Program-made: the position numbers and the translations under genes
The notes under the pieces: model-generated
Told to the model about the DNA's origin: nothing
What the model saw: only the letters and a program-made list of their open reading frames with translations
Databases searched by the model: none
Shown here: piece after piece, positions 8,431 through 61,948 of the stretch
How positions within the stretch are numbered: position 1 is the stretch's first letter
How the letters are laid out: every line of letters starts with the position of its first letter
Origin: Bacillota bacterium
GTDB lineage: Bacteria; Bacillota; Clostridia; Lachnospirales; Anaerotignaceae
Length of the DNA stretch: 64,000 bases
Direction of reading: 5' to 3'
Assembly (NCBI GenBank): GCA_021768705.1
Contig: JAETUG010000005.1
Coordinates: 1 to 64,000, forward strand

Positions 8431-8707
8431 GTAAATACGTTAAAAACACTGTGAAGGAGACAGTATGTATCCTCAGCCTGAGCGCAGAGAGATGGGAAAA
8501 GGTGCGATCCCGTCCTTGGGGAAGATACAGAAAATCACTCCGGAGTGGCAGACCGAACAGCTTCGCTCAGTAGGCTCTGTCGTTGCCCGCGTTAAGGGAA
8601 AGCATCATGATGGTGATGTGTCTAAGCTGGGCGGCGTTTTTATGCCGTCAAATCAGGTGGTACCGCGAGCTCTTTCGTCCTGTGTGGATGAAAGAGCCTT
8701 TTTATTG
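8431..8707 (+). ncRNA. T-box riboswitch (isoleucine) upstream of ileS
   Basis: A T-box leader senses uncharged tRNA by codon-anticodon pairing in stem I and NCCA pairing in the antiterminator. The T-box core AGGTGGTACCGCG is at 8655-8667, and its UGGU fits an ACCA tRNA end. The competing terminator GCTCTTTC/GAAAGAGC (8669-8697) is followed by CTTTTTATT. The likely specifier is ATC (8534-8536), an isoleucine codon in the same local context as the ATG specifier of the metY leader in this window. Open frames across this region are not genes. Confidence 0.92.
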
Positions 8708-8968
8708 AAAGGCGGAGAAAGCAAAGCATGGATATCGTTTCAGAAGCTTGCTTATTTAAAACGATATCATGATTTATTTGCGGAGCAAAGATACCGAAAA
8801 TCCAAAGGATTTGAGGCATCTCCGACTTTCCTGATATCAAAACAAAAGTGGAAAAACCGCACCATCATACATACAAAAGAAAAAAATATACAAAAGAAAA
8901 AACCGTCAAAATACAAAAGAACACTTGATCTTGAAAAGTATCTACTATCATTTTAAGGAGGAATTCAA
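8708..8968 (+). other. A-rich spacer between T-box terminator and ileS, with an extra hairpin
   Basis: About 260 nt separate the T-box terminator from the ileS start. GATATCGTTT and AAAACGATATC (8731-8768) form a 10-bp hairpin with a 17-nt loop. The rest is A-rich and carries no coding signal. Post-terminator spacers in T-box genes are often short, so this length is unusual. An RNA-processing or stability role is possible but unsupported. Confidence 0.5.
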
Positions 8969-32966: not shown

Positions 32967-33065
32967 TTTTTCGCCTCCTTGCATGGTACAAGTATATGCC
33001 GAAAGCAAAGAAAAAGAACGGACAAACCCCCGGTTCATCCGTTCCGTTATCGTTCCATATAGAAA

Positions 33066-33256
33066 ATGATCCCGAAATGCCGGTCTTGCCTCTTGACACC
33101 TAGCCTAAGCCAGGTGGGTTTCCGCAACTCCAGACTCTGCCTTCCCCCGCCCAAAGGGAATTATCTTGGGGCCTGACATATCTGTCGTGTATAGGAGTCC
33201 CGAGTCAGTAATGTAGGTTCAAATATGGCAAGTTGTCGAACATTTCAGGATTCTTT
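33066..33256 (-). ncRNA. ssrS: 6S RNA (SsrS)-like
   Basis: 6S RNA binds sigma-A RNA polymerase by mimicking an open promoter. A consensus promoter precedes the element. The predicted 5' part ATCCTGAAATG (33251-33241) pairs with CATTTCGGGAT at the 3' end (33079-33069). CTTGCC/GGCAAG and TTGA-ACCTA/TAGGT-G-TCAA continue the long closing helix on the inner side, and an imperfect inner rod (for example GCCC-AAG/CTT-GGGC) follows. The 3' part also has an alternative CACCT/AGGTG hairpin. Length (about 190 nt), rod shape and the AAACCCACC...AGGTGTCAAG end fit Firmicute 6S RNAs. No covariance search was possible. Confidence 0.75.
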
Positions 33257-59179: not shown

Positions 59180-59207
59180 TTGACAAAATTTTTTTGGATG
59201 TTATAAT
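59180..59207 (+). promoter_or_regulatory. Promoter of the metY T-box transcript
   Basis: Perfect TTGACA (59180-59185), 16-nt spacer, perfect TATAAT (59202-59207). Predicted start near 59214, just before the GTGGAAG/CTTCCAC hairpin. Confidence 0.9.
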
Positions 59208-59394
59208 AATCCCCAATACGGTGGAAGCAGAGGATTCTTCCACTCCTATAAATAAATATGGAAAGGCTATGACGAAGAGGGCTGAGTGCCTGCGTTTTCA
59301 GAGAGTCGGTGGTCGCTGCGAACCGATAACAAATGTACTCAACAGCCTATGGCTTCTGAGCCGGAGGTTCGAAAGTGTGAAACTAGAGCCAAGC

Positions 59395-59455
59395 GGATGT
59401 ATACAAGTGGATATATCGGATGCTTGCATACGAATATACCCACTTGCATACATCC
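59395..59455. repeat. Long imperfect palindrome inside the metY T-box
   Basis: GGATGTATACAAGTGG...TATATCG pairs with CGAATATACCCACTTG...ACATCC: arms of about 25 nt with only a few mismatches around a 12-nt centre. It is enclosed by the AGAGCCAAG/CTTGGCTCT helix. Confidence 0.85.
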
Positions 59456-59471
59456 ATTTGGCGAAAGCCAT

Positions 59472-59502
59472 CATTTGAAAAACACGAAGTGTTTTTCAAA
59501 TG
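59472..59502. repeat. Perfect 14-bp hairpin inside the metY T-box
   Basis: CATTTGAAAAACAC and GTGTTTTTCAAATG are exact complements around GAA. It lies beside the larger palindrome in the same enclosed segment. Confidence 0.9.
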
Positions 59503-59714
59503 TCTTGGCTCTTAAAAATAGTTTCCCACCGGTAGGCTCCTCCCGTGATTGCTGCGTAAAGGCATAGGGCTTGCTGGAGCCCGAAGAGGTGGCATATTTC
59601 AGATATGCAATTTGAGTGGTACCGCGGTTATGATTAGCCGTCTCAAAGGATTTCTTTGAGGCGGCTTTCTTTATTTTCATTTTAAAAATAATATGATCCA
59701 AGGAGGAATTTAAC

Positions 59715-61004
59715 ATGAGTGATTATCGTATCGAAACAAAATGCGTACAGGGCGGCTATACTCCCGGCAACGGCGAACCCAGACAGATCCCCATCATCCA
59801 GAGCACAACATTCAAATACAGCACCAGTGAAGATATGGGCAAACTGTTCGATCTGGAAGCAGATGGCTATTTCTACTCCAGACTGCAGAACCCCACCTGC
59901 GACCATGTAGCCGCAAAGATCTGCGCATTGGAAGGCGGCACTGCCGCTATGCTGACTTCTTCCGGCCAGGCGGCAAATTTCTATGCCGTATTCAATATCG
60001 TGAATTGCGGTGACCACGTGGTTTCCTCTTCCACCATCTACGGCGGTACATACAACCTGTTTGCCGTAACCATGAAGAAAATGGGGATCGATTTCACCTT
60101 CGTTGCTCCCGACTGCTCCGATGAAGAACTGGCAGCGGCTTTCAAGCCCAATACAAAGGCAGTATTCGGCGAAAGCATCGCCAACCCTTCCCTGACTGTG
60201 TTGGATATCGAACGTTTCGCCAAAGCAGCCCACGAACATGGCGTTCCCCTTATCGTGGATAACACCTTCGCAACACCCATCAACTGCCGTCCCTTCCAAT
60301 GGGGCGCAGATATCGTGACCCACTCCACCACAAAATATATGGATGGTCACGGTGCTGCTGTTGGCGGCTGTATCGTAGACAGCGGCAACTTCGACTGGAT
60401 GGCGCATGCGGATAAATTCCCCGGTCTGTGTACCCCCGACGATAGCTACCACGGCATCACATACGCAGAAAAATTCGGCAAAGAAGGCGCATTCATCACA
60501 AAAGCAACGGCACAGCTGATGCGTGATTTTGGTTCCACTCCTTCTCCCCAGTCCGCATTTCTGCTGAATCTTGGTCTGGAAAGCCTGCATGTCCGTGTCC
60601 CCCGTCACTGCGAAAACGGTCTGGCTGTAGCAAAATACCTGAAAGCCCACGATCAGATTGCATGGGTGACATACCCCGGTCTGGAAGGGGACAAATATTA
60701 TGAAGTGGCGCAGAAATATATGCCCAACGGCACCTGCGGCGTTGTCAGCTTCGGCGTAAAGGGCGGCAGAAAGGCTGCGGAAGCCTTCATGGGCCACCTG
60801 AAAACAGCAGCCATTGAAACCCACGTTGCCGATGCCCGCACCTGCTGTCTGCATCCTGCAAGCTCTACCCACAGACAGATGAACGACGCAGAATTGGCCG
60901 CTGCCGGCGTTCCCGGCGATATGGTTCGTCTCTCCTGCGGTCTGGAAAGCGCAGAGGATCTGATCGAGGATATCGCACAGGCTTTGGAAGCCATCAAAGA
61001 ATAA
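59715..61004 (+). CDS. metY: O-acetylhomoserine sulfhydrylase
   Basis: PLP enzyme that makes homocysteine from O-acetylhomoserine and sulfide. The 429-residue length and QSTTFKYSTSEDMGKLFDLE start fit the MetY branch, longer than the cystathionine synthases. The PLP lysine is in THSTTKYMDGHG, and YSRLQNPTCD and SSGQAA are standard. AAGGAGG precedes the ATG. With MetA downstream it forms a two-gene direct-sulfhydrylation route, under control of the Met T-box. Confidence 0.96.
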   Translation: MSDYRIETKCVQGGYTPGNGEPRQIPIIQSTTFKYSTSEDMGKLFDLEADGYFYSRLQNPTCDHVAAKICALEGGTAAMLTSSGQAANFYAVFNIVNCGDHVVSSSTIYGGTYNLFAVTMKKMGIDFTFVAPDCSDEELAAAFKPNTKAVFGESIANPSLTVLDIERFAKAAHEHGVPLIVDNTFATPINCRPFQWGADIVTHSTTKYMDGHGAAVGGCIVDSGNFDWMAHADKFPGLCTPDDSYHGITYAEKFGKEGAFITKATAQLMRDFGSTPSPQSAFLLNLGLESLHVRVPRHCENGLAVAKYLKAHDQIAWVTYPGLEGDKYYEVAQKYMPNGTCGVVSFGVKGGRKAAEAFMGHLKTAAIETHVADARTCCLHPASSTHRQMNDAELAAAGVPGDMVRLSCGLESAEDLIEDIAQALEAIKE

Positions 61005-61030: not shown

Positions 61031-61948
61031 ATGCCCATTAAAATACCCAATGAATTACCCGCAGCCAAGGTGCTGACCGATGAGAATATTTTTATCATGA
61101 CGGAATTCCGTGCCATCACGCAGGATATCCGCCCCCTGAAAATCCTTCTGCTGAACCTGATGCCCACAAAGATCGATACGGAAACGCAGCTTTCCCGTCT
61201 GCTGGGCAATACCGCCCTGCAGATCGAACTGGAATTGATCCATACCAAAAGCCATGAATCCAAAAACACCCCTGAAGATCATCTGCTGTCCTTTTATAAA
61301 ACCTTTGATGAAGTGAAAGACCAAAACTGGGATGGTTTGATCATTACCGGCGCCCCTGTGGAGCAGATGGAATTTGAAGAAGTAGAGTATTGGGACGAAC
61401 TGGTAGAGATCATGGAATGGAGCAAGACCCATGTCCACAGCACCTTCCATATCTGCTGGGGTGCCCAGGCCGGTCTGTATTATCATTATGGTATCCAGAA
61501 ACACATGATGGAAGAAAAGCTGTTTGGCGTATTTCCTCATAAGCTGGATAAAAAGAAATCTATCCTCTTCCGTGGCTCCGATGATGTCTTCTATGTGCCC
61601 CATTCCAGACACACAACCGTATTGAGAGAGGATATCGAAAAGGACCCCCGTCTGAAGATCATCGCTTCTTCCGAGGAAGCAGGCGTTTATGCCATCCATA
61701 ACGACGGCGGCAGCCAAATCTTTATTATGGGACATTCCGAATATGACCCCCACACACTGGAAAAGGAATATCTGCGGGATAAAAACGCCGGCCTGCCCAT
61801 CGAGGTGCCGAAAAACTACTACCCCAATGATGATGATACCCAAGACCCTCTGGTCACATGGAGGGCTCATGCCAACCTGTTGTATTCCAACTGGCTGAAC
61901 TACTTCGTTTACCAGACCACACCCTACGATATCACACAGATCAAATAA
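61031..61948 (+). CDS. metA: Homoserine O-acetyltransferase, MetA type
   Basis: A 305-residue MetA-family acyltransferase. The catalytic Cys is C142 in HICWGAQAG, and the His and Glu are in GHSEYDP. Residue 111 in [10 protein letters not shown] is Glu; in this family Glu111 goes with acetyl-CoA and Gly111 with succinyl-CoA, so the product is predicted to be O-acetylhomoserine, matching MetY. It lies 26 nt after metY. The ribosome site is weak (GGTGAAAG), which may lower its expression relative to MetY. Confidence 0.96.

What the first reader, a model, noticed from the sequence alone, without database searches (positions are those of the whole stretch)
59214..59670. Methionine T-box with two very large palindromic hairpins inside it
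Seen: between stem I and the antiterminator, an AGAGCCAAG/CTTGGCTCT helix (59385-59512) encloses a palindrome with arms of about 25 nt and a perfect 14-bp hairpin. Known: T-boxes have variable stem II/IIA-B elements, but far smaller. Inferred: the segment could be an inserted palindromic repeat tolerated within stem II, or a new functional domain. An extra 7-bp hairpin also precedes stem I.
Basis: partly seen in the sequence, partly recalled or inferred. Interest (0 to 1): 0.72.

Follow-up and report, generated by a model that had tools for sequence, protein, structure and literature searches.

The report
Mobile hairpin element inside a T-box
A bacterial RNA switch that likely senses methionine tRNA carries, in the loop of one of its arms, a 128-letter folded element of a family scattered through genomes of related bacteria; it likely jumped in, is predicted to fold by itself and leave the switch working, and relatives of it that a database files as a small RNA look like mobile DNA.

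Summary
Window 59260-59648 is a T-box (RF00230) upstream of metY-metA, and 59385-59512 folds into a closing helix with three hairpins, far beyond chance (z -11). It is not an ordinary enlarged stem II. Of five genomes of the genus with this leader, two carry the segment and three have a short stem II loop; seven more distant metY T-boxes also lack it. A covariance model of the segment finds homologs at unrelated loci in other genera, with 43 of 50 pairs showing compensatory changes. Weaker cross-matches tie the family to Rfam's Clostridiales-1 RNA (RF01699). In one relative, 20 fetched RF01699 copies are nearly identical, have unrelated flanks, and 17 show 5-6 bp target duplications, as MITEs do. 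The window holds a second copy (8717-8831) in the ileS T-box leader, absent from two congeners. Between the two species that carry it, the insert differs at 8/128 sites against 63/205 four-fold sites, so selection likely keeps it. Best reading: a palindromic, likely mobile element landed in the tolerant stem II loop, folds alone, and leaves tRNA sensing intact. The inserting enzyme and any added function are unknown.

The parts
59180..59207 (+). likely promoter: TTGACA (59180-59185), 16-nt spacer, TATAAT (59202-59207)
   Evidence: read; both boxes invariant in the 5-leader alignment; no transcription data
59221..59243 (+). 7-bp hairpin near the 5' end of the predicted transcript, GTGGAAG/CTTCCAC
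   Evidence: read; the aligned G007 stretch reads as a different hairpin, the three leaders without the insert have a gap there
59260..59648 (+). T-box leader (RF00230), likely methionine-specific
   Evidence: 71.8 bits, E 1.7e-15
59265..59362 (+). stem I with AGAGAG distal motif
59349..59351 (+). inferred specifier codon ATG
   Evidence: CTATGGCT invariant in 10 of 10 leaders; function inferred
59363..59543 (+). stem II, whose apical loop holds the insert
   Evidence: pair probabilities 0.84 (basal helix) and 0.92-0.98 (distal helix), about 0.4 for two pairs between them; short loop in relatives
59385..59512 (+). inserted element: closing helix P1 (59385-59393/59504-59512) enclosing three hairpins
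59395..59455 (+). hairpin P2, with GCTTGC at the tip
59459..59470 (+). hairpin P3, TGGCGAAAGCCA
59472..59502 (+). hairpin P4, 14 bp with GAA loop
59617..59623 (+). T-box bulge TGGTACC in the antiterminator
   Evidence: invariant
59636..59678 (+). predicted intrinsic terminator hairpin (59636-59666) with T-rich tail
   Evidence: pair probabilities 0.62-1.0; tail read
59715..61004 (+). metY, O-acetylhomoserine aminocarboxypropyltransferase
   Evidence: TIGR01326 565.1 bits over cut-off 495.1
61031..61948 (+). metA, homoserine O-acetyltransferase
   Evidence: NF047918 497.7 bits over cut-off 460.5
8442..8685 (+). T-box leader of ileS
   Evidence: RF00230 109.5 bits; ileS model TIGR00392 is the best match of the first 400 aa, a partial protein below the whole-protein cut-off
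8717..8831 (+). second copy of the element, between the ileS T-box and ileS
   Evidence: model R3, E 5.6e-8 and 6.7e-9; absent in G002 and G001

Best explanation
The 128-nt segment at 59385-59512 matches a family of dispersed palindromic elements and lies in the apical loop of stem II of a T-box leader, where it likely inserted in a common ancestor of this species and one congener and is predicted to fold on its own without disturbing the tRNA switch. Shown: the family, its covariation, and presence in two leaders of the genus against absence in three. Predicted: P1 (AGAGCCAAG/CTTGGCTCT) closes the element and sits on the distal helix of stem II, so stem I, stem II, stem III and terminator pair as they do without it. 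Inferred: uncharged tRNA-Met is sensed as usual and the element is carried as a passive extra arm, which would also lengthen the time RNA polymerase needs between stem I and the antiterminator. Inferred: it arrived by transposition, because related RF01699 copies elsewhere have MITE hallmarks; the enzyme is unknown. Its low divergence suggests selection now keeps it folded.
For: Family: model R1, built from the two inserts, matches 14 further genomes among 295 of the order at E <= 0.1, twelve of them at E <= 2.4e-8. The 18-sequence alignment has 43 of 50 pairs with changes on both sides and 89.4% of cells paired, against 63.5% in shuffles and 32.5-45.0% in slid controls (the alignment was fitted to the model). 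Model R3 matches 28 of 391 class genomes at E <= 0.001 and all 9 genus genomes at E <= 0.01. Presence/absence: G000 and G007 carry it, G001, G002 and G004 do not; seven more distant metY T-boxes lack it. Second site: the ileS leader copy is in G000 and G007 but not in G002 or G001. Mobility of relatives: 20 of the 53 RF01699 matches in G295, chosen for near-equal scores, are 98.7-100% identical with unrelated flanks, and 17 of 20 have 5-6 bp direct repeats. Modularity: 0.46 expected insert-outside pairs; T-box pair probabilities change by at most about 0.02 when the insert is left out. Constraint: insert 8/128 differences, T-box core 16/252, linker just 3' of the insert 8/18, metY four-fold sites 63/205; Fisher P 3.7e-8 against four-fold sites. 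The ileS copy differs at 3/140 against 31/194 four-fold sites.
Against: No target duplication is visible at either window site. The window insert does not match RF01699 directly, even at E <= 10; the link runs through intermediates, and most copies tested give no cross-match: 8 of 27 R3-type elements match RF01699 at E <= 0.01 and 8 of 22 RF01699-matching elements match R3 at E <= 0.1. No partner transposase was found. Only two species carry the insert, so compensatory evidence at this site is one pair changed on both sides, and shuffles reach that in 244 of 500. No expression or activity data.
Confidence: 0.75

Rival explanations
1. The inserted element has been taken over as a functional domain: it binds a protein, a metabolite or another part of the tRNA, and so adds an input to the methionine T-box.
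For: Insert as conserved as the T-box core (8/128 against 16/252) while the linker beside it differs at 8/18 and metY four-fold sites at 63/205. The ileS leader copy is also constrained (3/140 against 31/194). G007 carries a further copy after the metY terminator. Loops GCTTGC, GGCGA..GCC and CGAAG recur across the family.
Against: The same loops occur in copies at unrelated loci, in both orientations, so they need not serve the T-box. Three leaders of the genus and seven more distant ones do without it. No ligand or protein is suggested.
Confidence: 0.2
2. The element acts mainly on the RNA's fate: its long duplexes are cut by RNase III or shield the leader, setting mRNA stability for metY-metA.
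For: 14-bp and longer imperfect duplexes; copies sit in what read as pre-16S leaders, 0-9 nt after a same-strand stop codon in 11 of 57 examined copies (crude ORF calls) and near promoter-like boxes in G003. RNase III action on Neisseria NEMIS transcripts has been proposed (PMC2229807, passages).
Against: No RNA data; a cut in stem II would separate stem I from the antiterminator and should damage the switch.
Confidence: 0.12
3. It is only an enlarged stem II that grew in place by duplication and drift, with no insertion.
For: It lies at the length-variable apical part of stem II; stem II regions of up to ~200 nt are known (PMC7583486, passages).
Against: Full-length structural homologs at unrelated loci in other genera at E down to 7e-15 and a second copy in the same window.
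Confidence: 0.04
4. The conservation reflects recent shared ancestry of this stretch (recombination) or constraint on the DNA hairpin for mobility, not a role in the leader.
For: Both strands fold well; copies occur in both orientations; only two species compared.
Against: The linker beside the insert and the spacer before metY differ at 8/18 and 23/44 sites, so the stretch was not exchanged as one recent block.
Confidence: 0.2

Closest known systems
T-box leader (Rfam RF00230)
   Same: Stem I with AGAGA-type distal motif, stem II, stem III, UGGUACC bulge, antiterminator and terminator, upstream of metY-metA
   Different: 128 nt added in the stem II loop; score below the curated cut-off (71.8 against 93) while the insert-free leader of G002 reaches 94.8
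Clostridiales-1 RNA (Rfam RF01699; Weinberg et al. 2010, PMC2864571, table row seen)
   Same: Closing helix, long hairpin with GCUUGC tip, middle hairpin, last hairpin (alignments). Cross-matches both ways through intermediates: L288 scores 66.1 bits with RF01699 and E 8.6e-10 with R3; L160 and L159 match RF01699 below its cut-off
   Different: The window insert itself gives no RF01699 match up to E 10; its middle hairpin is much shorter; 19 of 27 R3-type elements scanned give no RF01699 match at E <= 0.01
BOX repeat between two trp T-boxes of pneumococcus (Croucher et al. 2011, PMC3049150, abstract and passages)
   Same: Small mobile-type folded repeat in a T-box leader; [quoted passage not shown]
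   Different: There the repeat lies between two T-boxes; here it lies inside stem II of one. Different host; sequence relation not tested
Neisseria NEMIS/Correia and ERIC MITEs (PMC2229807, passages)
   Same: Under 200 bp, terminal inverted repeats, transcribed hairpins
   Different: Sequence relation not tested; hosts differ; target duplications not seen at the window sites

Membership tests
T-box leader (RF00230) | Covariance-model score at or above the gathering cut-off (93 bits) | tested here: not met
   71.8 bits, full-length, E 1.7e-15; the insert-free leader of G002 scores 94.8
T-box leader (RF00230) | UGGNACC T-box bulge, antiterminator alternative to a terminator | tested here: met
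   sequence and model alignment; terminator pairs predicted
T-box leader (RF00230) | Specifier codon matching the regulated pathway | tested here: met
   ATG at 59349-59351, invariant in 10 of 10 leaders; metY-metA downstream; pairing with tRNA-Met inferred
T-box leader (RF00230) | tRNA-dependent antitermination | not testable with these tools
   needs in vitro transcription or a reporter
Clostridiales-1 RNA (RF01699) | Window insert matches the Rfam model | tested here: not met
   no RF01699 row for the insert at E <= 1 or <= 10
Clostridiales-1 RNA (RF01699) | Reciprocal matches through intermediate copies of the same family | tested here: met
   8 of 27 R3-type elements match RF01699 at E <= 0.01 on the same coordinates, below its cut-off; 8 of 22 distinct RF01699-matching elements match R3 at E <= 0.1 in overlap, seven of these over the RF01699 cut-off
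MITE | Multiple dispersed copies with unrelated flanks | tested here: met
   family level; in this genome 4 R3 matches
MITE | Terminal inverted repeats | tested here: met
   9-bp P1 at the window insert
MITE | Target-site duplication at the window insert | tested here: not met
   none visible; seen in 17 of 20 G295 RF01699 copies
MITE | Empty sites in relatives | tested here: met
   metY leader: absent in G001, G002, G004; ileS leader: absent in G001, G002
MITE | Partner transposase sharing the ends | tested here: inconclusive
   Y1 transposase neighbours not consistently associated; of 31 end-hairpin sites in G295, 26 adjoin listed RF01699 copies and the other five show no pair of ends around a transposase

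The most novel reading that the evidence does not exclude
A transposable RNA-folding element has been domesticated as a working domain of a riboswitch: after landing in stem II of the methionine T-box it has been held by selection as a second input or timing module, and the same element family repeatedly enters T-box leaders (metY, ileS, pheS) and rRNA leaders, so that an orphan Rfam 'small RNA' (Clostridiales-1) is in truth a mobile element that supplies ready-made RNA domains.
Probability: 0.22. Interest if true: 0.85.

Novelty: new variant of a known kind. Interest (0 to 1): 0.6.

Why it matters
It gives a concrete origin for at least one of the unexplained insertions known in T-box riboswitches: a dispersed palindromic element landing in a tolerant loop. 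It also suggests that Clostridiales-1, listed in 2010 as probably an RNA, behaves in at least one genome as a mobile DNA element with target duplications, which would change how its copies are annotated. The natural pairs (leader with and without the insert in one genus) make it directly testable whether a riboswitch can gain a domain by transposition.

Tried and rejected
Dispersed repeat found by DNA similarity: only self and short hairpin matches in the own genome and no full copy in 58 genomes of the family other than G000 and G007; the copies diverge too far in sequence, and a structure model was needed. A pattern search for the 14-bp hairpin was mis-specified (4-nt instead of 3-nt loop), so its zero says nothing. 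microRNA matches to the insert, all below their cut-offs, I take as chance matches of AT-rich hairpins. Y1 (IS200-type) transposase as mobiliser: present in 7 of 10 genomes; of 19 such loci scanned with Rfam, one adjoins an RF01699 copy and one holds a weak match, and R3 finds one match in 21 loci. The adjoining case (G159) reads as an element inserted into the gene, between TACTTA repeats; in G295 a cut-off copy lies near another Y1 gene that has its own hairpin. Search for a partner insertion sequence by the G295 end hairpin: 31 sites in G295, none in G159 or G000; 26 of 31 adjoin listed RF01699 copies, and the other five, fetched, show no pair of ends around a transposase (one lies near a contig end). 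I considered a processive antiterminator role because copies sit in rRNA and T-box leaders; copies in both orientations and after stop codons speak against it. Orthologous copies outside T-box leaders, to compare constraint: none among the G000 and G007 loci that I had fetched.

Limits: class and order searches used strict filters and scored only 8-11 candidates per genome, and one search scored at most 150, so counts are lower bounds. R3 was trained on sequences found with R1, and alignment A6 leans towards the structure. ORF calls are crude.

Full report
Observation. The window stretch 59260-59648 matches the T-box model over its full length (71.8 bits, E 1.7e-15) and lies upstream of metY (TIGR01326) and metA (NF047918). 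The gathering-threshold scan misses it; the model has to skip 151 nt in stem II. The segment 59385-59512 folds into a closing helix P1 and hairpins P2, P3 and P4 at -62.3 kcal/mol, z -11.1 against 200 shuffles.

Comparison within the genus. A DNA search of nine genomes of the genus (own included) finds the leader in five. Strong MetY matches (E <= 1e-100) are found in the same five and in none of the other four. G007 carries the segment (92% identity over the matched leader). G001, G002 and G004 have the same T-box with a short stem II hairpin in its place. Of 80 fetched GTDB loci with related MetY, 85% identical or less, a motif scan flagged 11, and Rfam confirmed a T-box upstream of metY in seven: L042, L048, L059, L078, L084, L105, L107. 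None has the segment; the place between CGA and the following GGTAG-like motif is short and variable in all ten insert-free leaders aligned. The simplest reading is a gain in the common ancestor of G000 and G007.

Constraint. Between G000 and G007 the insert differs at 8 of 128 aligned sites. Stem I differs at 8 of 113, the rest of the T-box at 8 of 139, the stretch just 3' of the insert at 8 of 18, and the spacer before metY at 23 of 44 with a large gap. Four-fold sites of metY differ at 63 of 205. The insert is thus as conserved as the T-box core and much more so than four-fold sites (Fisher P 3.7e-8). Of the eight changes, 59399 G/T with 59451 C/A is compensatory, 59403 A/G turns a mismatch into a pair in the G007 fold, 59436, 59443 and 59478 keep a pair through G-U, and 59385 and 59415 each leave a pair unformed in one species. 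With two sequences this is not significant covariation by itself (244 of 500 shuffles reach it).

A dispersed family. Plain DNA search finds no other full copy in 58 genomes of the family. A covariance model of the two inserts (R1) does: 16 of 295 genomes of the order match at E <= 0.1. Two are the sources, twelve others reach E <= 2.4e-8 (two of them, G003 and G006, in the same genus), and two at 0.0078 and 0.084 are weak. I dropped the weak and the antisense matches and aligned 18 sequences. On that alignment 43 of 50 pairs have at least one change on both sides, 89.4% of cells are paired, shuffles give 63.5% and slid structures 32.5-45.0%. The tip of P2 (GCTTGC), the GGC..GCC core of P3 and the CGAAG tip of P4 recur, while P2 and P4 vary almost freely in sequence. 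A second model (R3) matches 19 of 19 chosen genomes at E <= 0.01, including all nine of the genus, with 21 matches in G003 and 4 in the own genome, and 28 of 391 genomes of the class at E <= 0.001.

Where copies sit. Of 65 matches I set aside eight (duplicates, tandem second copies, one antisense) and examined 57. Both orientations occur; 36 of 57 overlap no called ORF of 80 aa or more, and 11 begin 0-9 nt after a stop codon on the same strand (crude ORF calls). Four start 53-68 nt after a T-box bulge motif on the same strand: ileS in this window, metY in G007 (a second copy in the same leader), and pheS in G006 and G008 (pheS for G006, by reading the similar protein for G008). Copies of G245 and G194 lie in what reads as the pre-16S leader (the 16S start is recalled). 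In G003, 8 of 19 fetched copies follow an exact TATAAT that ends 13-17 nt upstream, and several others have a near match. Downstream, 12 of 19 show a start codon with a Shine-Dalgarno-like stretch. Two copies at different places are 98.4% identical.

The second copy in this window. Window 8717-8831 matches R3 (E 5.6e-8 in the genome search). The ileS leader alignment shows it in G000 and G007 and a short spacer in G002 and G001. The stretch 8706-8845 differs at 3 of 140 sites between G000 and G007, against 31 of 194 four-fold sites in the first 1398 nt of ileS and 12 of 109 spacer sites.

Link to a named family. Rfam's Clostridiales-1 RNA (RF01699) matches 6 of 18 R3-type loci on the same coordinates at E <= 0.01 and 2 of 9 further ones, so 8 of 27 in all, each below its cut-off of 48 bits. 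In the other direction 8 of 22 distinct RF01699-matching elements also match R3 at E <= 0.1, the best being L288 (8.6e-10), L289 (2.9e-6) and L247 (1.4e-5), all over the RF01699 cut-off, apart from L293, which is R3-type itself. The other 14 gave no overlapping R3 match at that level. The window insert gives no RF01699 match up to E 10. I therefore call it a relative of, not a member of, Clostridiales-1.

RF01699 as mobile DNA. RF01699 matches 19 of 30 chosen genomes, 15 over cut-off, with 53 matches in G295 and 57 in G159. Twenty G295 copies with near-equal scores were fetched. Cores are 98.7-100% identical and left flanks 25% at the median. Of the 20, 17 have direct repeats of 5-6 bp, all at the same offset, around a unit of about 190 bp; two have no exact repeat and one has Ns beside it. 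These are hallmarks of a MITE. A copy in G159 lies inside a Y1 transposase gene between TACTTA repeats. No partner transposase was found. Text searches for 'Clostridiales-1' and 'RF01699' gave four and three papers. The one on structured RNAs (PMC2864571, passages) has 'y' (probably) in its 'RNA?' column and 'n' in the next two, whose headings I did not see; the others I did not read, and the library lacks most subscription journals.

Effect on the switch. Leaving the insert out of the folded sequence changes T-box pair probabilities by at most about 0.02, and the insert makes 0.46 expected pairs with the rest. This is a thermodynamic prediction without pseudoknots and without tRNA. A review of T-box structure describes the stem II S-turn as contacting the codon-anticodon duplex and reports stem II regions of ~10-200 nt and insertions of unknown function (PMC7583486, passages). 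The pneumococcal case of a BOX repeat between two T-boxes, where the authors judged from RNA-seq that the riboswitches still function (PMC3049150, passages), is the nearest precedent that I found.

Verdict. The feature is real. It is best explained as a palindromic element of a dispersed family, likely mobile, sitting in the loop of stem II, self-folding and tolerated, and now likely under selection. Whether that selection concerns the switch, the RNA's stability or the element itself is open.

Noticed in passing
window 8717-8831 (+): Second copy of the element family, between the ileS T-box and ileS; also in G007, absent in G001 and G002.
   Followed up: yes
L126 1800-1919 (G007): G007 carries a further copy between the metY T-box terminator and metY, absent from the window's species, so one leader holds two copies.
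   Followed up: partly
L137 and L147 (G006, G008): A copy sits just past the T-box of pheS in two congeners.
   Followed up: partly
L263-L282 (G295): Rfam's Clostridiales-1 RNA occurs here as near-identical units of about 190 bp with unrelated flanks and 5-6 bp target duplications in 17 of 20 fetched copies, as a MITE.
   Followed up: partly
L132, L134, L141, L143 (G245, G194): Copies lie in what reads as the pre-16S rRNA leader of these genomes.
   Followed up: no
L182-L200 (G003): Many copies in G003 share an upstream TGGTATAATRTTCACGAAAGCAA-like stretch (extended -10 promoter) and often precede a possible gene start; some have partial tandem copies downstream.
   Followed up: partly
window 59221-59243: 5'-terminal hairpin before stem I; G007 reads as a different-sequence hairpin in the same place, the three insert-free leaders of the genus have a gap.
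   Followed up: no
window 33065-33254 (-): 6S RNA, 54.5 bits.
   Followed up: no
L287 (G159 C29:36200-37363): An RF01699 copy sits inside a Y1 transposase gene, flanked by TACTTA repeats.
   Followed up: partly
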